Shown: positions 1 to 11,451, counted from the first letter of the stretch. The stretch: DNA of 64,000 bases from Halogeometricum sp. S1BR25-6 (GCF_031624495.1 NZ_JAMQOP010000002.1:310001-374000), one strand, 5' to 3'. Numbers and translations are program-made. Notes: generated from the letters alone by a model not told the origin.

Positions 1-147
1 ATGTGCAGCTTCGATGGCGAGTTCGTGTACCTCGTCGGTGATCTCGAGCCCAGATTCTACGGAGAGGGGCTCGGGGCGGAAATACGAATGAGGATGAGAC
101 GGTACGTATTCGCCCGGTGGCTCATGGGATGAATCCTCATTCTGCAT
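1..147 (-). CDS. Partial hypothetical protein (N-terminal 49 residues)
   Basis: An ATG-initiated frame on the minus strand starts at 147 and runs off the left window edge without a stop. The visible 49 residues are acidic and proline-rich (EPPGEYVPSHPHSY near residues 9-22), followed by a likely helical stretch ending ELAIEAAH. Haloarchaeal codon choice and acidity support coding. I do not recognise the family, and the length and function cannot be judged from this fragment. Confidence 0.5.
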   Translation of the reverse strand, partial: MQNEDSSHEPPGEYVPSHPHSYFRPEPLSVESGLEITDEVHELAIEAAH

Positions 148-693
148 AACGCGTACTCTTCGTACTATCGGATGGGACAAAGGTATTCTCGCGCGCGGGT
201 TTTTTGCTCAACTGGTGTTCTGGACGGACGACAGAAGCGTTTTATCCCCAATATTCTACAAACCCCATATACTCTAGTAATGATGGTTGTTCTGGAGGAA
301 GTTAACACAGAAGGGGAGAGGAGCAGTCCTGGCGATAGTAGTCAACGAACAACTCGCCCGATCTCGGGGTCAACATCGTTCAAGGAATGATGAAGCGGTC
401 ACGAGATACGATTTCGTCTTCGGTCTCTAATATGCGATTCGCGAGCGATCGAGAACACTTGAAACGTACTCTCCCCCCTCGATCCCGACCAAAATGTGGC
501 CCGAGCGAAGTCATCAGTGATGACCGCCACGATCATTGTCCTCAGGTTCTCAACGTTCTGGACGACGGCTATGACGTTTAACCCTCCATACTTGAATGAC
601 GCGTAGTAACAACCCCGGTACTCAGTGGTCTAACTTTCTAATCTGAAATTGTCCATCAGACGGGAGCTGAATCGGCTATCCGTGTATCCACAA

Positions 694-956
694 CGAATCA
701 CTCACTCTGGATACTCCGCTGATGGACACTGGTCTGTTGCCCCCCCAATCCCAACTGGTCAGCTGTCAACCAGACCACGTCGCCTCCCCCGAGGCGACGT
801 TCATCCTGCGACGACAGTTAGTCTGCCGTCGCTTACGTCTATTCCGACTACGCATCTCACTGCAACAGCGACGAGCGGAGAGTTCATACATGTTCCCTGT
901 TAACGTCCACTGTGGAAATCGTGTGCCAGCAGTGTAGCTGGTCAGTGAGTGATTCG
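694..956. mobile_element. MITE-like segment bounded by perfect 13-bp inverted repeats
   Basis: The sequence CGAATCACTCACT at 694-706 recurs as its exact reverse complement at 944-956, bounding a 263-bp stretch with no convincing gene. Inside are a perfect 10-bp-arm hairpin (777-800) and a GGTCTG/CAGACC pair (731-736 and 771-776). Terminal inverted repeats around a short non-coding core are typical of miniature inverted-repeat transposable elements. I could not see a clear target-site duplication, so it could also be a decayed insertion sequence or a chance pairing. Confidence 0.4.
777..800. repeat. Perfect hairpin, 10-bp arms and CCCC loop
   Basis: Arms ACGTCGCCTC (777-786) and GAGGCGACGT (791-800) are exact reverse complements separated by CCCC. 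It lies within the inverted-repeat-bounded segment and could be a terminator or a structural part of that element. Confidence 0.5.
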
Positions 957-1121
957 GGCGATCTGACGCCCTGTGAGTTCAACAGGCGGTCGATAGAGCA
1001 CTTCGTAGAGACGGGCCATTCAGTCTGTAGTACCGACCATCATCCGAGAGAAAGGGGCTATTAGCTCCGACTACCTGATTATTTATTTCCGACGGTGGGG
1101 TATCGCAGTAGACTGTAACTG

Positions 1122-1337
1122 CTATACTCGTTCGGGGTGTGCGTGACTGCAGTATGCACACTCGTAGACTCGGTGCGGTTTTCTGGCGCACTTCTCGTTT
1201 TCCGGCTTCACGTTGTCTCGCCGTATCACCGGCGTAATCGTCAGCGATATCTCGTGCTCGCGTTCCCCTCCGCAGTTCGAGCAGTGTCTGAGTACCATTC
1301 CATCCCGTTCCGACCATTCGAGGTTTTCTTTTGACAT
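1122..1337 (-). CDS. Small zinc beta-ribbon protein (DUF7835-like)
   Basis: This 71-residue protein carries two zinc-knuckle cysteine pairs, CSNC near residues 19-22 and CAYC near 60-63, spaced as in a zinc beta-ribbon. The middle segment (ENEKCARKPHRVYEC) matches the haloarchaeal pattern of short zinc-ribbon proteins that I believe are grouped as DUF7835, which are frequent in plasmids and integrated elements. The role is unknown; nucleic-acid or protein binding is likely. ATG is at 1335-1337. It is the first of three minus-strand regulatory-type genes (with 1423-1767 and 1869-2546). Confidence 0.65.
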   Translation of the reverse strand: MSKENLEWSERDGMVLRHCSNCGGEREHEISLTITPVIRRDNVKPENEKCARKPHRVYECAYCSHAHPERV

Positions 1338-1422
1338 CTTTATGCGGGGTTACTGCTGAGCGGTTGACCATCAGAAGCGATCGTTGGGAGAGACACGAAC
1401 GCCATACGCTGGATACGGTGCA

Positions 1423-1767
1423 TCAATCATCCACGGCCTCTGGAGCACGAACTGACCGACTGGATTCGTAATCAAATACCGCGTCTATCTTCTCGTCGCC
1501 GTTGTACTGGACGCTCTCGGCTCGATCATCGAAGTCGATAACACCGTAGTCAGCCAGTATCGGAAGGTGACGGTGGTGCAGGTCGATGGCGACGGCCTCT
1601 CTGTCCGGTGCCGACGACTGTCCCTCCCGTTCGGTTACGTAGTCGACGAGGTCGTCGAACGATGCAGTATCGTCGTCGCTGTTCCGAAAGTAGCCGAGGA
1701 TGTGCCGTCGACGTTCGTCTGCGAGGCACCGGAACACCGAATCAGAGGTGGGATCTTCCATCCGCAT
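1423..1767 (-). CDS. DUF7344-type winged-helix protein
   Basis: This 114-residue protein begins with the pattern SDSVFRCLADERRRHIL, the opening helix of the haloarchaeal DUF7344 winged-helix family of putative DNA-binding proteins. A later helix, HHRHLPILADYGVIDFDD, fits recognition helix plus wing. It probably binds DNA, but its target is unknown. ATG at 1767 and a second in-frame ATG at 1761 are both possible starts. It lies between the zinc-ribbon gene and the Bat-like regulator, same strand, with gaps of about 85-100 bp. Confidence 0.7.
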   Translation of the reverse strand: MRMEDPTSDSVFRCLADERRRHILGYFRNSDDDTASFDDLVDYVTEREGQSSAPDREAVAIDLHHRHLPILADYGVIDFDDRAESVQYNGDEKIDAVFDYESSRSVRAPEAVDD

Positions 1768-1868
1768 CGTTCATCTCTGGTTCACTCGTCCGGTTCAACT
1801 ACCTGCTTGACATATCTTCTCTGCCTCTCCCTACCGGATATGGAAAGCCATTTTAAGTAGAACTGATA

Positions 1869-2546
1869 TCACGACTCGTTGGTCGACTCGAAATTCTCAG
1901 CGACGAGACCAATCAACGACTTTCGGAGGACTGTCTCGGCTCCACGCCGGACACGCTCGGAGGTGGCTTGCCTGCTGATGCCCAATTGATCGGCGATCTC
2001 GTCGAGTTTTATTTCTCGGGGGACCGAGAAGTAGCCCTCTTGGACGGCCATCGTCAACGCCTCTCGCTGTTCGGGCGTGAGACCGAAGCCGTATTCGGTT
2101 CGGGAGGCTTCGTCGGGGGCGTACACGCGGTCGATGTGAACGGGGTAGTTGTGGGCCTGATAGAACTGGTGGAACCGCGTCAGGTCGGCGTGGCTCCGGA
2201 AGCGAACGGTGAACGACCACTCGGAATTACCGTGGGCGTCCATGATCGCCCCGTTGTGCTCGCTGAGACCGTTCAGGAACGTTTCCTTGTCCGTCTCCCA
2301 CTCGACGTAGTAGAGGACGCTCCCGCCGAGTCGCGTGACGGCCTCGAGGTGTTTGACCACCTCGCTGTCTCGAAGGTGTTGTTCGAACTGCTCGAACTCC
2401 TCTCCCGTCGCCCACAGGAAGGGGATACGGGATTCTCTGAGGGGGACGAGACGTTCGAGTTGGACCCGGACGTTCGGGTCCCCGCTCGTTGCCCGTCCGA
2501 ACGGGAACGAATTCGAGGGAAGCGTAAACTCAAGTACGACGCTCAT
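1869..2546 (-). CDS. Bat-type HTH-10 transcriptional regulator
   Basis: The 225-residue protein has an N-terminal Bat-associated sensor-like domain (about residues 1-150) and a C-terminal HTH_10 domain beginning near GFGLTPEQREAL, with helices LDEIADQLGISRQATSERV. This is the layout of haloarchaeal bacterio-opsin-activator-like regulators. No PAS or GAF domain is fused, so it is a short member. A purine-rich GGAGGA at 2556-2561, about 10 nt before ATG 2546, supports the start. A 15-bp palindrome at 2583-2597 is a candidate autoregulatory site. The target genes are unknown. Confidence 0.85.
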   Translation of the reverse strand: MSVVLEFTLPSNSFPFGRATSGDPNVRVQLERLVPLRESRIPFLWATGEEFEQFEQHLRDSEVVKHLEAVTRLGGSVLYYVEWETDKETFLNGLSEHNGAIMDAHGNSEWSFTVRFRSHADLTRFHQFYQAHNYPVHIDRVYAPDEASRTEYGFGLTPEQREALTMAVQEGYFSVPREIKLDEIADQLGISRQATSERVRRGAETVLRKSLIGLVAENFESTNES

Positions 2547-3234
2547 TGGGGCTTTTCCTCCGGGCAGTGAATGGGTGATGGACGGACAGGCTGTCCGACG
2601 ATCGAGAGATACTGTTTGTTCTCTGAGTTGGATACGTGGGTACTGTCATACGTGACTGATGATGGTGCGGAACTAACATGCTGAATGATATGTTCCGCGT
2701 GACTGCCACGCGAGGAGAACGAGGAGACTGCCTCCTTGACCGGGTATCCCGGCTCAACGGCCCCTTCATCTTAGGGACGCGAACACAGAGTGCGGTAGTT
2801 CCGTTACTCAGATCTTCGTAACAGAGCCGGATAACGGTTTGGCTGAGTTACTTCGATCGGTATAGAGAATAGAGCTGTCACAGTTCCAAAGGGTGACGAG
2901 TTCTGCTCAATGTGTCATGATAGACCGAACCTCTAATCAATTCGTACGCGCTACTGAACAGCTGATTCGACAGAGATGATGTGGAACGCATCCCGTACTA
3001 ATCCCACCACAGATTGGTCTGCGCAGAGGAGGAATTCTCGTGACGGCTGTCTCGAAGATGCTCAATGGGCGCCGACGAGGAACTCTGGTTCGACATCACT
3101 GATCCGTATCCGGGAGACACCTCTCGGGGAAATGTCGCATGCACCCCGAGACTGAGGAAACTACTGTCGAGGCTCACTCGTAATCCCTCGGACGTACAGT
3201 CGATAGCTAATTGAAATCGAAGTTATCAGATCGC
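2547..3234. other. Non-coding stretch of about 690 bp
   Basis: No open frame here has haloarchaeal amino-acid composition. The stretch holds the RBS and a perfect palindrome upstream of the Bat-like gene and otherwise shows nothing I can name. Confidence 0.5.
2583..2597. promoter_or_regulatory. Operator-like palindrome upstream of Bat-type regulator
   Basis: CGGACAG-G-CTGTCCG is a perfect 7+1+7 palindrome 37-51 bp upstream of the start codon at 2546. Its position in a promoter region and its symmetry suggest a dimeric regulator site. This is inference; only the symmetry is directly seen. Confidence 0.4.
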
Positions 3235-3456
3235 TCAGCACTCGGAAGAAGTCGACCGGAACTCGTCGATATGGTCGTAGTAGTACGCGAGAGCGGTGTG
3301 GATATCACCAAGACTGAGGTAGGGGTACAACTGCGTGATTTCGTCGGGATCGTAGCCACAATGCACGTGGGCGATCGCGATGTCCTTCACTCGCACCCCC
3401 GTGCCTTCCATTGTCGGTGCGCCATTGCTGTGTTCTGGGTCCTGTACGATGCTCAT
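3235..3456 (-). CDS. DUF433-family antitoxin-like protein
   Basis: The 73-residue protein has the DUF433 pattern: MEGTGVRVKDIA (the GTR-type motif), then GYDPDEI, then YPYLSLGDIHTALAYYYDH. DUF433 proteins are small helical proteins often encoded beside DUF5615 PIN-like toxins. The ATG at 3456 gives the standard N-terminus (MSIVQDPE); an upstream in-frame ATG at 3489 would add 11 atypical residues. No intact toxin gene is next to it. A 47-bp segment upstream (3501-3547) resembles the C-terminal coding part of such a toxin but contains a stop, so this may be an orphan antitoxin. Confidence 0.75.
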   Translation of the reverse strand: MSIVQDPEHSNGAPTMEGTGVRVKDIAIAHVHCGYDPDEITQLYPYLSLGDIHTALAYYYDHIDEFRSTSSEC

Positions 3457-3500
3457 GTGGCGAAGAGGAGAGACGTTGACTTGAAGCACGGGGTCACTGA

Positions 3501-3547
3501 GGACTTGCTCTCAGTGCAATTCGACGAAACTCTCGTCGGCCGAGATC
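3501..3547. repeat. 47-bp direct repeat, copy 1
   Basis: This segment matches 4071-4117 at 42 of 47 positions in the same orientation. Read on the minus strand it encodes ISADESFVELH followed by a stop and EQV, compared with ISTDERFVGLHWEQV in the other copy. Both look like the LISTDxxFV end of a DUF5615/PIN-like toxin, so the repeat is probably what remains of two related toxin genes. Confidence 0.5.
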
Positions 3548-3667
3548 TGGTTATTATCGGAAGACGTTTCGCCGAGAGTGGTCAATGAAAAGCCCGCTCA
3601 ATCACTATTCAGGATTACTGAATCAGCGAACGGTATGAGGAGTAGTGAGGTGATCATGGGGGTGAAT

Positions 3668-3961
3668 TCAGCTCTCTGTATCGTCTTCCCGGGACTCGTT
3701 TATGTCTGAGAGCTCCTCGAACAGTTTGTTGGCTTCCTCTTGGCGACGGGCGAGGCCGTAGCTCGTGGCTTCGCGACTCCGCTGGGCAGCATTCACGAAC
3801 TCGTCGATGTCGCCCTCGTAGGTACCGATACTGTGTCGCCAGTCCGATGTCACCTCCGCTATAATTCGCTTGACGGCGTCGCTGAAGCTCTCATCGTCTC
3901 GCCTCTCCGCTTTGAGGAGGTCGTACGCCTCGTCATCGAGCTCGATCCTATTCGTCCCCAT
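3668..3961 (-). CDS. VapB-family antitoxin (DUF217 type)
   Basis: Starting at ATG 3961 gives MGTNRIELDDEAYDLLKAE, the standard opening of archaeal VapB antitoxins, followed by ESFSDAVKRII. The 97-residue length fits. An upstream in-frame ATG at 3991 would add 10 atypical residues. VapB proteins bind and silence PIN-domain VapC ribonucleases and repress their own operon. No vapC follows within the next several hundred bases, so it seems to be an orphan. The gene lies just downstream of a toxin-like pseudogene fragment (4020-4218). Confidence 0.8.
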   Translation of the reverse strand: MGTNRIELDDEAYDLLKAERRDDESFSDAVKRIIAEVTSDWRHSIGTYEGDIDEFVNAAQRSREATSYGLARRQEEANKLFEELSDINESREDDTES

Positions 3962-4019
3962 GGTAGTGGATAAATTGTGATGGTATACCAAAATAGAATC
4001 GGCGACGCGGTTTTTGAGT

Positions 4020-4218
4020 CTACGAGATCAACCCGAACGATATCGTCTTCCTGATTGTGGATTAAATGGGGGACTTGCTCCCAGTGCAATCCGACGAATC
4101 TCTCGTCGGTTGAGATCAGCACTGCTCCGTGTGAATTCTCGCGCGCGCTATTTTCCCGATGTCGAGTTGTTGATCGGGCGATAGCAGGCTCGTAGCTGTG
4201 GAATTTTACCCGCTCCAT
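4020..4218 (-). pseudogene. Fragment resembling a DUF5615/PIN-like toxin C-terminus
   Basis: An ATG-started frame from 4218 reads ARENSHGAVLISTDERFVGLHWEQVPHL when pieced together from residues about 26-50. The motif (A)REnxxxVLISTDxxFV is what I would expect of the second acidic cluster of DUF5615 PIN-like toxins. The N-terminal catalytic half is missing, and the frame continues into unrelated-looking sequence overlapping vapB. It may be the wreck of a toxin gene. The 47-bp core is duplicated at 3501-3547. Confidence 0.4.
4071..4117. repeat. 47-bp direct repeat, copy 2
   Basis: Same-orientation partner of 3501-3547 (five mismatches). In both places the repeat sits on the 5' side of an antitoxin-like gene on the minus strand, which suggests duplication of a toxin-antitoxin unit followed by decay. 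Confidence 0.5.
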
Positions 4219-4527
4219 ATACTCTATCAGAGGAGTTGTCTACGACGGAGTTGCTCATGTGGGGTTGCTGCCGAAGGAGATGGTTCGAGTTGTGTCTCTA
4301 TTCTCCGTGGTAGAGGTGATGGATACTAACTGGTTTCCTGAGCGGATGTCTTGCGTGTTCTCACTCCCCCCTCTTCTGTGATAACTTTCCTCTGATGTTA
4401 CAGACAGTACTTCGCTGTCCCAGTTGTCTCCAATGGGAAACCTCCCAAGTCGAGAGGATGAACTATCAGACAACCAGTGACTCGGCGCCAACAGATCCGC
4501 ATCAGTCGGCGCAGACAGGGCCGGCTT
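4219..4527. other. Non-coding stretch of about 300 bp
   Basis: I see no supportable gene here. A minus-strand open frame at 4255-4491 is serine-rich and lacks any recognisable pattern or promoter. Confidence 0.4.
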
Positions 4528-5577
4528 CTACAGTGATAGAGTCGAGTCGGAGACGACCACTTCGCTCGTTTCGACGTCACCGTCGCGCCCCTTCGTATCT
4601 GGTTCGAGCTCGAATCGAACAACGTTGCCAGCTCCGATATCAGTCTCGTTTGTTCGTTCCCACCCAATCACCTCTCCAGCTGGATTATAGACCTTCGCGA
4701 CCACTTCGACATAGTCAAGCGATCCGTCTCGCTGGTTCTGAACCTGCCCTCGAACGAGTACTTGGGACTCTGACGACCGAAGTTCAACACCGGACAATGT
4801 TACTCCGTCCGGGTCCAACGTAGTGGCCAGAGCCACGTTTCCAACGCTCACCTCGAAGTCGTCGATCACGCTGTAGTCGTCGACATCAATCGATGGGTCG
4901 ATACGCGCAGACCATGTCTCGCCCACACCGAGAGTCTGGACGTAGCCCTCACTGGAAGCAAGGTATTCGCCGGCATCGTTGAGCCAGTCCACAGTGACCG
5001 GGAGTCGTTTGGTGGGAGATTCGCCGTCGTTCGTCACGAGCACGCCGGCCATCGGTCTCGTCTCATATCCCGTGTCGACCTCGACTAGACTCGTCTCACC
5101 GATTGTAATGTCTGGCTGGGGGACGACGACGTCGTACGACCATTCAGTGTCGTAGTCGACTAATCGGAATTGGAGCTGATACGCTTGATCGAAGCTGACG
5201 TCGTCCGACGTGAACTTTCCTGTCTCACCGGGGGCGACGTCTTCGATCTGGAAGGAGCCGATTTCCTCCCAGCGAGTCGCGTCGGCGGTGCTGAGCTCAA
5301 CGGTCGTCTCGAAGGTTCCTGCTTGATCGCCTGTGTTTCGGATGCGAACGGTGAAGTTGTGTTCCTCACCCGCTTGGACCTGGTCGGGAGCATCGACACC
5401 GATGACCTCGAATGACGCAGATCCTCCTTCTGATGCCTGGGTCGAGGTAGACTCTTCCTGGGTCGTCTCCGTGTTCTCATTACCCTCGGTGGCACCATCC
5501 GAGTTGTTCGTGCCACCCGCGCATCCTGATATGCTAATAATACCCACAGTTAGAGCCAGATAGCTTCGACGTCGCAT
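4528..5577 (-). CDS. Secreted lipoprotein with FxLYD-like beta domains
   Basis: The 349-residue protein starts with MRRRSYLALTVG and a lipobox ISGC (cysteine near residue 19), so it is probably a lipid-anchored cell-surface protein. A threonine/glutamate-rich linker (about 20-50) leads to a CARDB-like beta domain (FTVRIRNTGDQAGTF) and a C-terminal domain resembling FxLYD (VRGQVQNQRDGSLDYVEVVAKVYNPAGEVI). Such domains are common in haloarchaeal surface proteins. Substrate and partners are unknown. A TTAATC element about 26 nt before ATG 5577 fits a leaderless start. Confidence 0.75.
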   Translation of the reverse strand: MRRRSYLALTVGIISISGCAGGTNNSDGATEGNENTETTQEESTSTQASEGGSASFEVIGVDAPDQVQAGEEHNFTVRIRNTGDQAGTFETTVELSTADATRWEEIGSFQIEDVAPGETGKFTSDDVSFDQAYQLQFRLVDYDTEWSYDVVVPQPDITIGETSLVEVDTGYETRPMAGVLVTNDGESPTKRLPVTVDWLNDAGEYLASSEGYVQTLGVGETWSARIDPSIDVDDYSVIDDFEVSVGNVALATTLDPDGVTLSGVELRSSESQVLVRGQVQNQRDGSLDYVEVVAKVYNPAGEVIGWERTNETDIGAGNVVRFELEPDTKGRDGDVETSEVVVSDSTLSL

Positions 5578-5976
5578 TCATGAACCGAAGAAGTGTCATC
5601 TGATTAACTTTGGTGTTCCAACAATAGGATGTGTGCGCACAGGTGAATCCTGAGACTGATGGAACTGAACACTCAACGATCGGCTCACAGAACACCAGAT
5701 TTCTCGGTGGTGGGAGTCCACCAAGCTCCGTGTGTTCCGATTAGTTCAGTGGATGTGGGCACGAAACAACTCTTCAGTAGAGTCGTACGCCTTGAGTGGC
5801 TGATTTATCTCACCTCTCGTACCGTCATCTGGACACCACTGATAGTATGTCAGTATAAGGTTTCCAGTCCTTATCTACACGTCGCAGCGACCGCCTTTCG
5901 AAACACTTCCCATTCCTCAGACAATATTTGATATCGTTAAAAAGATTGAATATTTCACACCTCCTGAGAGTTCTGT
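5578..5976. other. Intergenic promoter region, divergent genes
   Basis: About 400 bp between the divergently transcribed lipoprotein and the 5977 gene. The right end is AT-rich (TTAAAAAGATTGAATATTT at about 5937-5955), fitting a promoter about 27 nt before ATG 5977. Nothing else recognisable is seen. Confidence 0.4.
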
Positions 5977-6579
5977 ATGGATCCCTACGAGGAAATAACG
6001 CTCTGGTTTACAATCGAAGACGATTACGAGGTTGAACTCCCCGAAACGGGAGACACGAAGCCAGCAGTGAGAATGGGAGATCTCGGGTTGTTCTTTTTCA
6101 AATATGCCGGCCTCGTCGGTGCAGCGGACGAGATGCTCTCAGGGAATGAAGAGATGGAATCGTATGTATTTGAGGTTCTCCAGCAGATTACGCCAGGGGA
6201 GATTACAGAATTTCAAGTGCCGGATGACTTTGAAGAGAAACTCCATGAGTGGGGTGTCATTGATGCATTCAGAGGCCGACCCGAGAGTTTCGCTACTTCT
6301 GCTTCCATGAGCCTCCAGTATCTCAACAAGCCAAATTTCATCGATTGTGGTGCCCTGACTGGTCCGATTGCCATTCTTATTTTCTCCCTACTCCTGAAAA
6401 ACGTGGGTGGGGGCAACATAACGGAGACGACGTTAATTGAGCGGGATACCAAGGGGAACGTCACGAAGACCGAAACCCGAAAACGGGGTATCTGGTTGGG
6501 GAAAGAAGAAGAGACTCCACCTCTTTCGGACCTCCTCGCAGTGATCAATGAACTGTCGGGAGGAGACATCTGCGAGTAG
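5977..6579 (+). CDS. Hypothetical protein, possible membrane-associated
   Basis: I do not recognise this 200-residue protein. It begins with an acidic segment (MDPYEEITLWFTIEDDYEVELPE when read in parts) and has one hydrophobic stretch near residues 129-143 (GPIAILIFSLLLKNVGGG), then a charged segment with a repeated-threonine patch ending at ELSGGDICE. Codon use is lower in GC than the core genes, as for its neighbours. An AT-rich promoter lies just upstream. It might sit on the membrane by the single hydrophobic segment; function cannot be assigned. Confidence 0.6.
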   Translation: MDPYEEITLWFTIEDDYEVELPETGDTKPAVRMGDLGLFFFKYAGLVGAADEMLSGNEEMESYVFEVLQQITPGEITEFQVPDDFEEKLHEWGVIDAFRGRPESFATSASMSLQYLNKPNFIDCGALTGPIAILIFSLLLKNVGGGNITETTLIERDTKGNVTKTETRKRGIWLGKEEETPPLSDLLAVINELSGGDICE

Positions 6580-6709
6580 CACCGACAAGGCATTAACCTC
6601 CACTGAGCGAACGGGCTCTTCGGGTTACGGGGCTCCACCCTCACCCGTGACACAACTCCAGCGGAAAACCCACAGAGAATGCTCGTCTTGCCACAGCCAA
6701 CAGTGCCAT

Positions 6710-6727
6710 CCAACGGACATCCGTTGG
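6710..6727. repeat. Perfect inverted repeat in leader of the RNase H-like unit
   Basis: CCAACGGA-CA-TCCGTTGG is an 8-bp perfect inverted repeat about 90 bp upstream of ATG 6818. A second pair, ACTACT (6752-6757) and AGTAGT (6763-6768), follows. These could be an operator or leader hairpins for the 6818-7385 gene pair. Confidence 0.4.
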
Positions 6728-6817
6728 TTCCTGGTTAAGTACAGCGCCGTGACTACTAATTGAGTAGTGGGAGTCGGTACGGCCACACCGAGCAGTACCT
6801 GCGCTCCCACAGTCAAT

Positions 6818-6961
6818 ATGTCTGATCCGAAATTTAGCACCATCCATATCCAACGAACAGATCTTCAGGATCTCGATGACTACGCCAAGAGGGAGTTCGG
6901 GACCACTGATATCCCGTACCGCGTGATCGTCCAGCACCTCCTCGCCGAACATGTGGAGTAA
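6818..6961 (+). CDS. Small RHH-like protein overlapping RNase H-like gene
   Basis: This 47-residue protein reads MSDPKFSTIHIQRTDLQDL then DDYAKREF and TTDIPYRVIVQHLLAEHVE. A short beta-like segment followed by two helices resembles ribbon-helix-helix antitoxins and repressors, though similarity is only by pattern. The end overlaps the start of the RNase H-like gene at 6951 by 11 bp, so the two are very likely cotranscribed and translationally coupled. ATG 6818 is preferred over an upstream frame start because the RHH-like part begins here. Confidence 0.5.
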   Translation: MSDPKFSTIHIQRTDLQDLDDYAKREFGTTDIPYRVIVQHLLAEHVE

Positions 6962-7385
6962 ATTCTGGTCCACGGCAGAGGAACCGGCGTACGATGTCAC
7001 TCTCAACTTCGCTGGAGCCTGCCGGGATAATTCGGGCCCCAGCTCGTATGGACTCGTACTCCAACGCTCGGGGGAGAGAACTACGTATTCTGGTGAGCTC
7101 GGAGTCTCAACGAGTAGCGGGGCAGAGTTCCGAGCACTGATTTTCGGATTGAAGAAGGTGCTCGTCGGGGGTGCATCACATCTCCAGGTGCGAGGCAGCT
7201 CCGAGGTTGTTCTGAGGCCACTCCAGGGAGAGTACCAGATGCCAGACGGTCCTCTCTGGAGAGATTACTACTGCGCGAACTGGCTCATTCGACAGCTCGA
7301 CGACGTTGAGATCACCTGCGTTCCTGCTCATCTCAACAGGGAGGCGACGAGACTAGCCGAAGATGCGCTAGACGATCACTTCTAA
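6951..7385 (+). CDS. RNase H-fold protein with degenerate active site
   Basis: The 144-residue protein aligns to RNase HI along its whole length: FAGACRDNSGPSSYGLVL (first strand), GAEFRAL (helix A), RGSSEVVLRPLQGEY, and VPAHLNREATRLAEDAL (last helix). Compared with the intact paralogue at 8603, the first catalytic Asp is Ala21, the second is Ser83 and the last is Thr134; only Glu59 of the DEDD set is kept. It should therefore lack hydrolase activity but may still bind RNA/DNA hybrids. It is coupled to the small 6818 gene. Decay is unlikely to explain this, because the frame and fold motifs are otherwise intact. Confidence 0.7.
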   Translation: MWSKFWSTAEEPAYDVTLNFAGACRDNSGPSSYGLVLQRSGERTTYSGELGVSTSSGAEFRALIFGLKKVLVGGASHLQVRGSSEVVLRPLQGEYQMPDGPLWRDYYCANWLIRQLDDVEITCVPAHLNREATRLAEDALDDHF

Positions 7386-7752
7386 ATGACACAATTAACT
7401 CCTTGCTTCGGATAGATAGAGTCACAATTCTTCTGTTCGGGAGTATTGGCGGGGAAATGATGTTGACCTGCAGTGTTTCTGAATCAACTGGACGCTATCT
7501 GTCTTCTGTGTAGTCAGATTCGTCACTCCCATCCTCTGCTTGATTTGATGAGTAATCGTGCTGAGTCTCTTTTTTTATACAGCAACTTTTTCAGGGACGA
7601 ATGTCCCGGTAGTACCTCTCCGAGAAAATATGAGTATCTGCTGCTACGATTTTGCCCATGGGTTTCCACGGAGAACCTCTGTAAAGTCGCATATATACTC
7701 GGTTAACGCAGAGGGAGAGAAACGTGCTCACGTTAACTAACGCGGGCCCAAT
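7386..7752. other. AT-richer non-coding stretch
   Basis: About 370 bp without a convincing gene. A plus-strand open frame at 7473-7706 is cysteine- and leucine-rich, unlike haloarchaeal proteins, and is rejected. No repeat was noticed. Confidence 0.4.
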
Positions 7753-7893
7753 CTAATACTGATCGTTGAGGCAGGCGTCGTAGCGCATCTGCCCAACTTG
7801 GTGTTGTAGCTCTACGCTTGACTCGTTGACGTGGCTCAGTATGCCTCGAATACGCGACGATGCGCAGCCAGGGTAGTTCTCCTCGTCGCTCAT
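7753..7893 (-). CDS. Candidate 46-residue small protein
   Basis: From ATG 7893 the frame encodes MSDEENYPGCASSRIRGI followed by LSHVNESSVELQHQVGQMRYDA and ends in NDQY. The acidic start and helix-like middle are plausible for a haloarchaeal small protein, and GGAG lies close upstream of the ATG. I do not recognise a family. It could be spurious. Confidence 0.35.
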   Translation of the reverse strand: MSDEENYPGCASSRIRGILSHVNESSVELQHQVGQMRYDACLNDQY

Positions 7894-8002
7894 GGTGTCT
7901 CCATTCGGTGCCCGCGACCATGGAAGTATCGCCGGCAACGGCCACCATCGCGTGGTCTGCGGGGCACAGGAACACTAAGGCACGACGAGTACAGTCTCAT
8001 CT

Positions 8003-8365
8003 ATGGGTTCGGGAAGCATCGATATCGGCGAGTTTGAATCCGCTAGCGAGGACGAATTCCGGTCAGCGTCAGGTACTGAAGATGTGATCACATTTCTAAA
8101 TGAGCATCGCGATCGGGCATGGACAGCGAGCGAGCTCGCATCGCGTACCGAGCTCGATCCCGACTCCGTGAGGACGATTCTGTGGCGCCTGAAGGAGCGA
8201 GATTTAGTCAGGTACAAGGAACCGTATTGGGCGCTCACGGATGATACCGATCGACTCAGTAACGCGTATTACCTCCACAAGACCACTGAGCGTCTCAATC
8301 GTCGATATGGGACGGAGAATCTCAAGGAGTGGATGACCGAGGATTCTAGATCAATAGAGGACTGA
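8003..8365 (+). CDS. MarR-like winged-helix protein, possible antitoxin
   Basis: The 120-residue protein has a winged helix at about residues 25-80: VITFLNEHRDRAWTASELAS, then LDPDSVRTILWRLKERDLV and the wing RYKEPYWALTDD. Haloarchaeal proteins of this size and pattern are often encoded next to MazF/PemK- or RelE-like toxins and serve as antitoxin/repressor. Here the following 237 bp contain no toxin gene, so it appears to be an orphan. The C-terminal helix (LHKTTERLNRRYGTENLKEW) is typical of the group. The toxin link is from general knowledge, not from this locus. Confidence 0.65.
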   Translation: MGSGSIDIGEFESASEDEFRSASGTEDVITFLNEHRDRAWTASELASRTELDPDSVRTILWRLKERDLVRYKEPYWALTDDTDRLSNAYYLHKTTERLNRRYGTENLKEWMTEDSRSIED

Positions 8366-8445
8366 GTTCAGGTGCAGTAGCAAGCGTGTGAATAGCACTC
8401 GTGCGCCAGTCATCTAAAATATTATCTCTCCATCTCACCAACGAT

Positions 8446-8507
8446 TGGATGAGTCGTGTCCGGGGAATGTTCTCCGGGGACGACTAATACAGCCCTCAGG
8501 TTCGACG
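8446..8507 (+). repeat. Structured repeat, copy A (upstream of RNase HI gene)
   Basis: The 62-bp unit begins TGGATGAGTC and ends AGCCCTCAGGTTCGACG, both shared with copy B at 9286-9343. Between them lies a two-part stem: outer AGTCGT (8452-8457) with ACGACT (8480-8485), inner CCGGGGA (8460-8466) with TCTCCGG (8471-8477, one G.T pair), loop ATGT. The flanking sequence is conserved while stem sequences differ from copy B yet still pair, which points to a selected structure in RNA or single-stranded DNA. Confidence 0.6.
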
Positions 8508-8602
8508 ATCCCCTTCCGATACTTCGCCTGGTCAGTCGTGTACACGACTAGCCGAGGCTATGTCGGGTAGGAGACCGCGTTGGCTCGAGGGCATAACCGT
8601 CT

Positions 8603-9046
8603 ATGATGAAGAAAATCCCAACAAAACAATCGGAAACCGAGAAGCAGAGCAACGAAAACACCACAGGTACCCTCCATTTCGATGGTGGATCGCGGTTAAA
8701 TTCTACATCCGCTGCGTACGGATTTGTGTTAGAGATCGGTTCGACATTAGTTGAGGAATCAGAACACATCGGTCACGGAACGAACAACCAGGCGGAGTAT
8801 GCGGGACTCGTAGCAGGACTCAGCAAGGCACGTGAGATGGGCGTCACCAAAATACATGCCTTCGGAGATTCTGAACTAATTGTAAAACAGGTAACAGGCG
8901 AATACGCAGCGAAACATGAGAATATTCGCCCCCTGTACGAACGAGCAAAGGAGCTCATCCCTGAGTTTGACGAGTTTACGATAGAACACCTTTACCGGGA
9001 CGAAAACTGCCGAGCGGATAAATTAACCAAGCAAGAGCTCGATTAG
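8603..9046 (+). CDS. rnhA: Ribonuclease HI (RNase H type 1)
   Basis: RNase HI cleaves the RNA strand of RNA/DNA hybrids such as primers and R-loops. The 147-residue protein keeps the full catalytic set: Asp27 in FDGG, Glu65 in NNQAEYAGL, Asp89 in GDSELIV and Asp139 in CRADKL. It is the short archaeal type without a hybrid-binding extension. It starts at ATG 8603 (a second ATG follows directly). Structured repeats lie upstream (8446-8507) and downstream (9286-9343). With the PrimPol gene at 10121 it suggests a replication role on the integrated element. It is intact, unlike the degenerate homologue at 6951. Confidence 0.85.
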   Translation: MMKKIPTKQSETEKQSNENTTGTLHFDGGSRLNSTSAAYGFVLEIGSTLVEESEHIGHGTNNQAEYAGLVAGLSKAREMGVTKIHAFGDSELIVKQVTGEYAAKHENIRPLYERAKELIPEFDEFTIEHLYRDENCRADKLTKQELD

Positions 9047-9431
9047 CCAACGCAACTCAGAGATGTTCAGTACACCCATCTTTACTGAGTAGGCTACTCA
9101 CGAGCGTCTCCTTCTATTCACGGGTAGTGGAGGCCGAGTAGACGATCTGTGAGAAAGTGGTGGATCGGGCAATTTATTTGGGAGATTTCATTTAGTAATG
9201 GCAATAGTCTAACTGAATGAACGGAGTTAATTCACCCTCATACAAGATTTGTACTAAAATCTTAATACGTCCTCGTTCCTGGATCTGGATGAGTCACTGG
9301 GAATGATTCCCAGCACGACTATCAAAAGCCCTCGGGTCCGACGCCCTCCAACTCGGCGATTCCACTGAGATCCCTTATGACCTCCAGCGGATGCGCTGTC
9401 AAGCGGTGTCACCAGAGGCAAAGAATGCCAA
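9047..9431. other. AT-rich intergenic region carrying structured repeat
   Basis: About 385 bp without a gene. The left half is AT-rich (about 9170-9270), and the right half holds copy B of the structured repeat. An AT-rich tract beside hairpins, close to a primase gene, could mark an origin, but nothing proves this. Confidence 0.4.
9286..9343 (+). repeat. Structured repeat, copy B (upstream of the PrimPol unit)
   Basis: This copy starts TGGATGAGTC and ends AGCCCTCGGGTCCGACG. Its inner stem is CTGGGAA (9297-9303) with TTCCCAG (9307-9313), perfect, loop TGA; the outer stem is AGTC (9292-9295) with GACT (9317-9320). The inner stem differs from copy A at several positions but remains paired. Confidence 0.6.
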
Positions 9432-10124
9432 ATGAAAGCAATAAATTACTTTCCCGACATGCGGAAGTACCGACGTGCGAGCAACCAAGCAGAACGAAAA
9501 CCGGTCGAGAAAACTCGGTATCTGCCACTGGAGAGCAAGTACGCTGCTTCCATGTCGAACCCCGGGTTTGGGGCGACCACTGAGAGTCTCGAAGGATATC
9601 CAGACGGAGTCGAATTTCTGCCGAGGATAGCCTTTCGCGAGCCTGCGACAACGCTGTATGCGAGAGACGCTCCAGAGGACCTCGAAGATCTGTATAATCG
9701 TCTCTGGAAGCATCAGCACGGTCGCCTCGCTACCCCGAGGTTCAAGATCTCCAGCGAGGTGGAAAAGGGGCTCATGGTCGATTCAACAGAGGAGGAGAAA
9801 TATCTCCGCATCCGGCCTCTACTGGACTTGGTACCGCAGTGCCGACGGTACGCCGTTATCCGTCGGTTTCAGCGGGCAAATCTACGTCGTTTCAGCGCTC
9901 ACTACGGGGGCAACGAAGGTGCCTTCATCGGTGCTGCCATCATCGAGATGTACGACGATCTGGAGTCGTTCCTGAACGCTGAGTCGGATCTACACGATCG
10001 CGCAAGAGAATACTGGGACGTCTACCAGCCGGAGCGCGATGAAAATGACGAGAGGAAAAAGTACATTCCAGAGCTCGAGGATCTGGCGGAGTTCGCTTTC
10101 GAGGTGTGGGGTGACGAGGAATGA
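9432..10124 (+). CDS. Hypothetical protein in operon with PrimPol
   Basis: I do not recognise this 230-residue protein. It is charged throughout, with basic N-terminal segments (MRKYRRASNQAERK) and an acidic C-terminus (PELEDLAEFAFEVWGDEE). The middle reads RRYAVIRRFQRANLRRFSA, a possible nucleic-acid-binding helix. Its stop overlaps the start of the PrimPol gene (ATGA at 10121-10124), so the two are translationally coupled, which suggests an accessory role in replication or priming. Copy B of the structured repeat lies about 90 bp upstream. Confidence 0.7.
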   Translation: MKAINYFPDMRKYRRASNQAERKPVEKTRYLPLESKYAASMSNPGFGATTESLEGYPDGVEFLPRIAFREPATTLYARDAPEDLEDLYNRLWKHQHGRLATPRFKISSEVEKGLMVDSTEEEKYLRIRPLLDLVPQCRRYAVIRRFQRANLRRFSAHYGGNEGAFIGAAIIEMYDDLESFLNAESDLHDRAREYWDVYQPERDENDERKKYIPELEDLAEFAFEVWGDEE

Positions 10125-11161
10125 GTGCCCCAGCAGAACCAGCTGACCGTTACGTCGTCACAAATCCTGATCGCATCCCCGTAGAGTTGCGTGAGAGGAA
10201 AGAGTGGCTCGTCGCGCGAGTCACCGAGAACGGGAAGCCACCACTCGCCCCAAACGGCGGTGATTCGTGGAACGACACGTCTCAATCGCTCTTAGAGTTC
10301 GACGACGCATATGAACTGACCTGCGAGATCGCGCAGTCCGGGCGGATTGATACTGATGCTGGTGAACGGGTAGCACTTGCATACCGGCTCACTGCCGGTG
10401 ACCCGTATACTGGAATCGACATCGACGATATCGAGGACATCACTCTCGTTTCCGGTCTGATCGAGAAGTTTTCCACCGGATACATCGAGAAGTCCGTCTC
10501 AGAGAACGCTCACATCATCGTGAGAGCCTCAATCCCCGAAGTGACTGGTGGTAAGTATTCACTGTCGGATGTGGATGGTGCTACAGTGGAGCTGTACGAC
10601 CGGAACCGCTATCTCGTCTTCACCGGTGACGTAGTTCGCTCGGCCTTACCCATCGGCGATGGTCAGGAAGAGATGGATGCACTCGTCGACGAACTAACGG
10701 CGAAAAACCAGAGCCGAAGAAGAACTCACTCCTCCCCTACGAGGGGCGGTCCGAAGCAAACGAGCTCAATCACCGACATCGGGAAGCGGTCTGCTCGGTG
10801 GTATGCTCAGGGTTCAACCCGATCGAGCACTGACCGACCAACTGCGGACGAGGTTGTAGCCACAGCCAGAGAGTACGACCATGGATTTGACTCCCTCTGG
10901 CGCGGTCAGACGTCTGGGTATGAGACTCAGTCAAATGCAGACATGGCTCTCGCTACCAAGCTCGCGTTCTGGTGCAAAGGAGATGAGTCGCTGATGGACG
11001 AGTGCTTCCGTCAGAGCGATTTCTACGGCTGCCGAGGTCAAGAAATCCCGAAGTGGGATGCAGTGCGCAAGAGCTCCGGTGATACCTACGGAGATCTTAC
11101 GCTTCGAGAGGCGAGGCGACTCAATGCAGGGAGATACCAAGGGTCGTACCTTCGTCAGTAA
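10121..11161 (+). CDS. NrS-1-like primase-polymerase (PrimPol) without helicase
   Basis: Residues about 1-190 look like a primase-polymerase domain: PDRIPVELRERKEWLV, the acidic cluster GIDIDDIED, and ATVELYDRNRYLVFTGD, as in phage/plasmid PrimPols of the NrS-1 group. A basic linker (about 195-225) leads to a C-terminal helical bundle domain (SLWRGQ, QSNADMALATKLAFWC, DECFRQSDFYGCRG, KWDAVRKSSG) known from NrS-1 polymerase. At 346 residues it lacks the helicase domain of the phage enzyme. It probably makes primers or copies DNA for the integrated element. It is coupled to 9432-10124 and ends about 215 bp from the tRNA. Confidence 0.75.
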   Translation: MSAPAEPADRYVVTNPDRIPVELRERKEWLVARVTENGKPPLAPNGGDSWNDTSQSLLEFDDAYELTCEIAQSGRIDTDAGERVALAYRLTAGDPYTGIDIDDIEDITLVSGLIEKFSTGYIEKSVSENAHIIVRASIPEVTGGKYSLSDVDGATVELYDRNRYLVFTGDVVRSALPIGDGQEEMDALVDELTAKNQSRRRTHSSPTRGGPKQTSSITDIGKRSARWYAQGSTRSSTDRPTADEVVATAREYDHGFDSLWRGQTSGYETQSNADMALATKLAFWCKGDESLMDECFRQSDFYGCRGQEIPKWDAVRKSSGDTYGDLTLREARRLNAGRYQGSYLRQ

Positions 11162-11376
11162 TCATGTCTATCGTTGTCGTAACCAGGGATATGCCAGTCT
11201 GCAATAGATTTAATATTCTACCCATGTTCCTTTGGCACAGACCAGCAGATGGCGTCAATGCCAACAGTAGTCTTGCTCGAATGTCACAAGCGTCATGACC
11301 GGAACTAAATCGGATCCCGGGGATAGAGGACTCATGAGCTCCGATAACGGTAAATTACCTTCAGGCAAGAAAGAAG

Positions 11377-11451
11377 TGGGTTGGGGCGGATTCGAACCGC
11401 CGGCCTGCTCCGTGTGAAGGAGCCGTCATAACCTGGCTAGACCACCAACCC
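11377..11451 (-). tRNA. tRNA-Val (anticodon CAC)
   Basis: The minus strand folds into a standard 75-nt cloverleaf: acceptor GGGTTGG/CCAACCC, D arm GTC/GAC, anticodon stem GCTCC/GGAGC with loop TTCACAC (anticodon CAC, reading GTG valine codons), a 5-nt variable region, T arm GGCGG/CCGCC with TTCGAAT, and discriminator A at 11377. No intron is seen and CCA is not encoded. The 3' end faces the low-GC accessory region, so this gene is the probable attachment site of the element to its left. Confidence 0.95.

What the first reader, a model, noticed from the sequence alone, without database searches (positions are those of the whole stretch)
8603..11161. Possible primer-handling module: RNase HI, unknown protein and helicase-less PrimPol beside a tRNA
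Intact RNase HI, a coupled unknown 230-residue protein and a 346-residue NrS-1-like PrimPol lie in a row at the tRNA-proximal edge of the accessory region. The PrimPol has the polymerase and helix-bundle domains but not the helicase, so it may work with host helicase or with the coupled protein. With the structured repeats this looks like a compact replication system for an archaeal integrative element. The combination is not one I know as described.
Basis: partly seen in the sequence, partly recalled or inferred. Interest (0 to 1): 0.6.

Follow-up and report, generated by a model that had tools for sequence, protein, structure and literature searches.

The report
Tiny archaeal element's primer-making gene set
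Three neighbouring genes - an RNA-cutting enzyme (RNase HI), a previously unnamed small protein predicted to have a cyclin/transcription-factor fold, and a DNA primase-polymerase - form an inherited set carried by mobile elements of salt-loving archaea that insert into tRNA genes; the smallest such element (4.5 kb) holds little more than these genes and an integrase, which makes the set a candidate minimal DNA-copying kit.

Summary
8603-9046 is an intact RNase HI; 10121-11161 is an NrS-1-type PrimPol plus helix-bundle domain without helicase; 9432-10124 (ORF2) matches no named family. ORF2 and PrimPol overlap (ATGA), and the pair recurs at 14 further haloarchaeal loci. ORF2-linked PrimPols form one supported clade. 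A non-housekeeping RNase HI lies nearby at six of the 15 pair loci (one broken), and the element RNases form their own clade. The window is the right end of a 25.05-kb element in tRNA-Val: 20-bp att repeats, SNJ2-type integrase at the far end, empty site in a sister species. Five more elements have att repeats (4.5-14 kb); the 4.56-kb one holds only RNase HI, PrimPol, ORF2 and integrase as recognisable genes. ORF2's C-terminal domain is predicted to be a single cyclin box (TFIIB/TFB-like). Structured leaders precede ORF2, and RNase HI shares cis-sequence with the ORF2 operon in two unrelated lineages. Best reading: a compact priming/replication cassette using host helicase; replication itself is inferred, not shown. 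Lack of a helicase is not special: most haloarchaeal PrimPols of this type lack one, and those sampled mostly sit beside conjugation genes.

The parts
1..11394 (.). Right-hand 11.4 kb of a 25,054-bp integrated element (G000:C2:296341-321394); the left part, with the SNJ2-type integrase (C2:296575-297642, +), lies outside the window
   Evidence: 20-bp att direct repeat and integrase next to the far copy; GC 0.538 inside against 0.69 outside; empty site in sister species G392
8445..8594 (+). Structured leader upstream of RNase HI, related in sequence to the ORF2 leader
   Evidence: Fold z-score -5.6, 0 of 200 shuffles as stable; similarity to the ORF2 leader score 57, best of 200 shuffles 35; motif pair 2 found against 0.01 expected
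8603..9046 (+). RNase HI with intact catalytic acids, member of an element-borne RNase HI clade
9285..9430 (+). Structured leader directly upstream of ORF2
   Evidence: Fold z-score -3.1, 0 of 200 shuffles as stable; structured regions at the same place in several other elements
9432..10124 (+). ORF2, 230 aa, new family; C-terminal domain (about residues 107-230) predicted single cyclin box
   Evidence: Conserved partner of short PrimPols; models and fold comparison; profile comparison with TFB
10121..11161 (+). Short NrS-1-type PrimPol with helix-bundle domain, no helicase; overlaps ORF2 by ATGA
11375..11394 (+). att repeat at the tRNA end (AGTGGGTTGGGGCGGATTCG); identical copy at C2:296341-296360
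11376..11451 (-). tRNA-Val (CAC), the integration target
6951..7385 (+). Second RNase H-like gene, probably catalytically dead (three of four acids replaced); peripheral to the module
   Evidence: RVT_3 1.3e-12; alignment

Best explanation
RNase HI, ORF2 and PrimPol are the priming/replication cassette of a family of haloarchaeal integrative elements that use an SNJ2-type tyrosine integrase to enter the 3' ends of tRNA genes. After excision as a circle (inferred), ORF2, a cyclin-box protein, would bind the conserved structured region in front of its own gene and recruit or control PrimPol; PrimPol would make the first primers there with the help of its helix-bundle domain, relying on the host helicase (MCM) and replicative polymerases; RNase HI would remove RNA stretches or R-loops there. 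Shown: protein families, gene coupling, single branch for ORF2-linked PrimPols, co-inheritance of RNase HI, shared cis-sequence between RNase HI and the ORF2 operon, element ends, empty site. Inferred: replication, the roles of ORF2 and RNase HI, use of host helicase.
For: ORF2-PrimPol pair at 15 loci, 12 with 1-8-nt overlaps; ORF2-linked PrimPols are one side of a 99%-supported branch. Of 12 non-housekeeping RNase H hits in 12 genomes, 7 lie within 6 kb of this locus, and the element RNase HIs form a supported clade. Six att-bounded elements, the smallest (4.56 kb, G313) with integrase, ORF2, PrimPol and RNase HI as its only convincing genes, so no other candidate replication gene is there. 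Catalytic motifs kept. Leader conserved at 90-94%, above ORF2 and PrimPol coding sequence, in the G313 group. NrS-1 PrimPol+HBD without helicase primes and polymerises in vitro (PMC7102993, PMC8718748).
Against: No experiment or sequencing read shows excision or replication. RNase HI is missing from most pair loci. The window PrimPol is a long branch and has lost the two glycines of motif II (SVSENAH instead of SGTGLH), near residues that matter in NrS-1, so this copy may be weakened. Some distant ORF2 relatives live without PrimPol. A Thermus mobile-element PrimPol was dispensable for element replication (PMC7693054). The leader has little covariation. The window element also has a 284-aa protein with an HxH motif that could be another replication protein.
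Confidence: 0.6

Rival explanations
1. The cassette is for establishment or defence rather than for replication of the element: PrimPol acts on incoming single-stranded or foreign DNA (second-strand synthesis after transfer, or interference with DNA uptake).
For: Thermus ICETh2 PrimPol is not needed for replication of its element but lowers transformation 100-1000-fold (PMC7693054). Haloarchaeal PrimPols of the sister group lie beside DUF87/VirB4 transfer genes at 24 of 29 sampled loci.
Against: No PADLOC defence model matches RNase HI, ORF2 or PrimPol. No transfer genes in the 4.5-5 kb elements. The element PrimPols are a separate group from the transfer-linked ones.
Confidence: 0.2
2. ORF2 is a TFB-like transcription regulator of the operon and of RNase HI (and perhaps of integration), not a replication protein; PrimPol alone supplies priming.
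For: Cyclin-box fold shared with TFB; the same cis-sequence precedes the RNase HI gene and the ORF2 operon; ORF2 relatives occur without PrimPol. It differs from the best explanation only in the job of ORF2.
Against: ORF2-PrimPol coupling is kept at all 15 loci (one frameshifted), which suggests a stoichiometric partnership; single box, no zinc ribbon seen. No profile hit to SNJ2 recombination accessory proteins.
Confidence: 0.15
3. Chance neighbours: unrelated cargo genes at an integration hot spot.
For: The 25-kb element does carry unrelated cargo (type I restriction-modification, Fic protein).
Against: Pairing, clades and RNase HI enrichment; stand-alone 4.5-5 kb elements built around these genes.
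Confidence: 0.02

Closest known systems
NrS-1 phage primase-polymerase (PDB 6a9w, 7rr4; PMC7102993, PMC8718748)
   Same: PrimPol domain with SxS loop instead of zinc finger, plus helix-bundle domain; profile E 3.4e-48 over both domains
   Different: No C-terminal ring helicase; translationally coupled to ORF2; carried by an integrative element with its own RNase HI
SNJ2 (Betapleolipovirus) and other elements with SNJ2-type integrases (PMC8371274, PMC13107129)
   Same: Integrase of the same type (44.6% identity over 99%); integration into tRNA 3' ends
   Different: No SNJ2 accessory protein relatives; SNJ2 replicates by the rolling-circle protein Rep-Arvir (PMC13107129), whereas the small elements here show only integrase, ORF2, PrimPol and RNase HI
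Haloarchaeal PrimPols of conjugative-type plasmids (e.g. Halarchaeum pCBA1220-02; C6 of this genome)
   Same: Same NrS-1-type enzyme, also without helicase
   Different: 390-520 aa, next to DUF87/VirB4 genes, no ORF2; separate group on the tree
PrimPol-PV1 mobile elements integrated in tRNA genes (PMC5862659)
   Same: Same kind of arrangement: AEP primase on a tRNA-integrated element with direct repeats
   Different: The set with a cyclin-box protein and RNase HI is not described there in the passages read; membership of PrimPol-PV1 was not tested
TFB/TFIIB and cyclins
   Same: Predicted fold of the ORF2 C-terminal domain
   Different: A single box; sequence similarity only marginal

Membership tests
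NrS-1-type PrimPol | AEP motifs I-III (DxD, SxS...H, acidic) and the NrS-1 helix-bundle domain | tested here: met
   D100, D102, S125, S127, H131, E157 present; HBD 7.9e-17; PDB profile 3.4e-48. Motif II glycines lost in the window copy
NrS-1-type PrimPol | C-terminal helicase region as in full-length NrS-1 polymerase | tested here: not met
   Protein ends after the HBD at 346 aa; hence 'NrS-1-type PrimPol', not an NrS-1 polymerase orthologue
NrS-1-type PrimPol | De novo primer synthesis | not testable with these tools
   Needs purified protein
Elements with SNJ2-type integrase | SNJ2-type integrase and att repeats at a tRNA gene | tested here: met
   phmmer of SNJ2 gp1 to the window element integrase 2.4e-77; 20-bp repeats; empty site
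Betapleolipovirus | Virion genes and Rep-Arvir replication protein (DUF7845) | tested here: inconclusive
   The four genes of the G313 element match other families and none matches DUF7845; the 20-kb cargo of the window element was not scanned in full
Cyclin-box (TFB/cyclin) superfamily, for ORF2 | Five-helix cyclin fold | tested here: inconclusive
   Two models: top hit cyclin B1 Z 6.1; 33 of 33 best entries TFIIB/TFB/cyclin, Z 4.3-6.3, next 3.4. Consistent, but below the Z 8 that would settle it
Cyclin-box (TFB/cyclin) superfamily, for ORF2 | Sequence similarity to TFB repeats | tested here: inconclusive
   hhalign P 1.6e-4, probability 50%; best of 30 column-shuffled controls 7.7e-3
RNase HI | Catalytic D-E-D-D | tested here: met
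   Present in 8603-9046; three of the four replaced in 6951-7385

The most novel reading that the evidence does not exclude
A cyclin-box protein acts as the dedicated replication initiator or primase loader of a minimal archaeal replicon, and element-encoded RNase HI processes an RNA made from the structured leader into the first primer or clears its R-loop (a ColE1-like start, but with a PrimPol), so that four genes and one leader suffice to move and copy a 4.5-kb element.
Probability: 0.2. Interest if true: 0.8.

Novelty: new variant of a known kind. Interest (0 to 1): 0.6.

Why it matters
It defines a widespread but sparse family of haloarchaeal elements (ORF2 or a distant relative in 20 of 392 genomes of the order) whose smallest members may be among the simplest self-mobile replicons of archaea, and it offers a candidate cyclin-fold partner of a primase-polymerase. 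The set is small enough to be tested gene by gene in a laboratory Haloferax strain.

Tried and rejected
ORF2 as an SNJ2 recombination accessory protein: no hit of its profile to SNJ2 gp2/gp3. ORF2 as a helicase, nuclease or other named family: nothing credible in Pfam, PHROGs, NCBIfam, PADLOC or PDB sequences. Leader as a known RNA: no Rfam match above threshold. Leader structure by covariation: only 1 of 55 and 2 of 63 pairs show two-sided changes. Relatives of ORF2 in sequenced plasmids and phages: none by tblastn. Profile scan for ORF2 in IMG/VR not possible, alignment too diverse. Close relatives of the window PrimPol in IMG/VR: none; the clade profile finds only virus relatives at 24-31% identity. 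An early 17-mer att search missed the far copy because it reached past the repeat. A first TFB alignment mixed strands and was discarded; the corrected one still contained two wrong-frame rows (L188, L192) in the 'all' and 'C' sets, not in the N-repeat set that I quote. The 284-aa protein with an HxH motif in the element (L050:16473-17327), a possible rolling-circle protein, had no family or plasmid match.

Full report
OBSERVATION. 8603-9046 is RNase HI with all four catalytic acids. 10121-11161 carries the NrS-1 helix-bundle domain (Pfam PF22763, 7.9e-17) and matches phage primases over its length (4.3e-35); a profile of its clade hits the solved NrS-1 primase at 3.4e-48 across both domains. 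Motif I (DIDDIED), the SxS loop, the histidine and the acidic motif III are present; motif II has lost its two glycines, which makes the window copy an outlier. 9432-10124 (ORF2) has no credible family. A tRNA-Val lies 215 bp downstream on the other strand.

CONSERVATION. A search of 293 genomes of the order with ORF2 alone found six others; for G068, G231 and G224 the matches stand directly in front of a short PrimPol, and ORF mapping showed the same pair in G164, G088 and, frameshifted, G150. With a profile, 20 of 392 genomes have ORF2 or a distant relative; family-level searches added G416, G486, G497 and G477. In all, 15 loci have ORF2 followed by PrimPol (window, G068, G231, G224, G313, G088, G150, G164, G336, G322, G082, G416, G486, G497, G477); in 12 the genes overlap by 1-8 nt, in eight of these by 4 nt. 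On a tree with transfer-linked and viral PrimPols the ORF2-linked ones are one side of a branch with 99% support (quick method, the other haloarchaeal rows were chosen as best matches to the window protein).

RNASE HI. In 12 genomes with the pair or its remains there is one housekeeping RNase HI each; of the 12 other RVT_3 hits, 7 lie within 6 kb of the ORF2-PrimPol locus (window twice, G224, G313, G336, G165 and a broken copy in G231), where about 0.04 would be expected if they were spread evenly (12 hits x 12 kb / 3.6 Mb, my arithmetic). G165 has only an ORF2 fragment and a degenerate PrimPol, so it is not among the 15 pairs. G416, outside that set of 12, adds another. Thus six of 15 pair loci have one nearby (window, G224, G313, G336, G416, and G231 broken). 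The element copies form a clade apart from the chromosomal copies (95/99), so they travel with the element.

ELEMENT. Direct repeats of the tRNA 3' end bound six elements: window 25,054 bp (20-bp repeat, C2:296341-321394), G336 14.3 kb, G164 9.0 kb, G224 5.2 kb (28 bp, 2 mismatches), G088 5.1 kb, G313 4.56 kb (30 bp). In five of these a tyrosine integrase lies next to the far repeat; in G164 no SNJ2-type integrase was found in the stretch read. The integrase is of the SNJ2 type (44.6% identity of the G313 protein to SNJ2 gp1). In the sister species G392 the two flanks of the window element are about 295 bp apart. The G313 element reads tRNA-Tyr / RNase HI / PrimPol / ORF2 / integrase / att, with no other convincing gene. 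The window element has the same order with cargo (type I restriction-modification, metallopeptidase, phosphoesterase, Fic) between integrase and RNase HI. The module near the tRNA and the integrase at the other end are the constant parts; in G336 the module is turned round relative to the tRNA.

ORF2. AlphaFold models of the window protein (block pLDDT 84-94 over most of the C-terminal domain) and, separately, of the G224 C-terminal domain (mean pLDDT 83) are helical. VIA-align puts cyclin B1 first for the former (Z 6.1, 96 residues, 4.0 A; next entry 3.2). For the latter the 33 best entries are all TFIIB, archaeal TFB or cyclins (Z 4.3-6.3) and the first unrelated one has 3.4. Foldseek scores are weak (E above 1), though cyclins and TFIIB recur among its best, and TFIIB-like proteins also appear among weak viral matches. 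Profile comparison with the host's own TFB first repeats gives P 1.6e-4, probability 50%; a reversed control gives nothing and the best of 30 column-shuffled controls 7.7e-3. I take a single cyclin box as likely (about 0.75), not proven. Distant relatives of ORF2 without PrimPol also occur, some near SNJ2-type integrases, so ORF2 may have a role that is not tied to PrimPol alone.

CIS SEQUENCES. Directly upstream of ORF2 lies a structured stretch of about 150 nt in the window and in two lineages whose sequences do not obviously align (z -3.1 in the window; over 200 nt G068 -5.0, G231 -2.3; over 150 nt G313, G224, G416 -1.7 to -2.9; no signal in G088, G164, G150). In the G313 group it is 90-94% identical, above ORF2 (73-88%) and PrimPol (69-88%) and equalled only by the integrases of the closest pairs. 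In the window a related copy precedes RNase HI (z -5.6; similarity 57 against 35 at most in 200 shuffles). In G313, G224 and G416 a different sequence (CCGCCCGATTGTCATAG...) is shared by the RNase HI upstream region and the integrase-ORF2 gap, 0 of 200 shuffles each; in G088 it precedes a membrane-protein gene instead. Sharing in two lineages ties RNase HI to the ORF2 operon, by common regulation or by a common origin-type site. Covariation support is minimal, so DNA-level conservation is as possible as RNA structure.

OTHER PRIMPOLS. Most haloarchaeal NrS-1-type PrimPols have open frames of 390-520 aa, too short for the helicase; 24 of 29 sampled loci (two of the 29, L026 and L030, are not of the long type), plus the second PrimPol of this genome on C6, have a DUF87 transfer-type gene close by. 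They fall in a separate group. That suggests priming of transferred single strands for those, and is the basis of one rival reading here.

MECHANISM. Best reading (0.6): priming/replication cassette. NrS-1 PrimPol+HBD alone primes and polymerises (PMC7102993, PMC8718748); the 4.5-kb element has no other candidate replication gene; the pair is translationally coupled. Shown: gene families, coupling, co-inheritance, element ends, empty site. Inferred: excision, origin in the leader, PrimPol as starting primase, ORF2 as DNA-binding adaptor, RNase HI as remover of RNA, host MCM as helicase. Rivals: an uptake/establishment function after the Thermus ICETh2 precedent (PMC7693054), and ORF2 as a plain transcription factor.

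NOVELTY. PrimPols on tRNA-integrated elements are known (PMC5862659), SNJ2-type integrases are known from haloarchaeal elements (PMC8371274), and SNJ2 itself replicates by a rolling-circle protein with a hairpin origin (PMC13107129). I found no description of the RNase HI / cyclin-box / PrimPol set in the papers searched (most subscription literature is not covered). Hence: new variant of a known kind.

Noticed in passing
6951-7385: A second RNase H-like gene in the same element with three of the four catalytic acids replaced (A, S, T); looks catalytically dead, perhaps kept for RNA/DNA-hybrid binding.
   Followed up: partly
L051 (G000:C6:84000-103900) and L014-L042: Long haloarchaeal NrS-1-type PrimPols (about 420 aa) lie next to a DUF87/VirB4-type transfer gene at 24 of 29 sampled loci, plus C6 of this genome: a conserved plasmid-transfer association of a helicase-less PrimPol.
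   Followed up: partly
L050:16473-17327 (C2 about 307472-308326): 284-aa protein with a SHWHVYW motif, possibly a rolling-circle HUH-type protein, without any family or plasmid match.
   Followed up: partly
L050:8116-19181 (C2 about 299115-310180): Cargo of the element: type I restriction-modification (HsdR, HsdS-like, HsdM), YgjP-like metallopeptidase, phosphoesterase and a Fic protein matching PADLOC SoFic.
   Followed up: no
L087:11765-12726 and L080:2727-3702: In elements with a distant ORF2 but no PrimPol, a conserved pair of small unknown proteins (about 95 and 230-250 aa) lies downstream; possible alternative partner genes.
   Followed up: no
L231 (G392:C2:742000-744500): The empty tRNA-Val site of the sister species keeps a second partial att copy about 100 bp from the tRNA, as does G394; looks like the scar of earlier integrations.
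   Followed up: no
3235-3991: DUF433 and VapB-antitoxin-like genes on the minus strand in the accessory region, with a 47-nt 89% repeat at 3501 and 4071; candidate toxin-antitoxin remnants.
   Followed up: no
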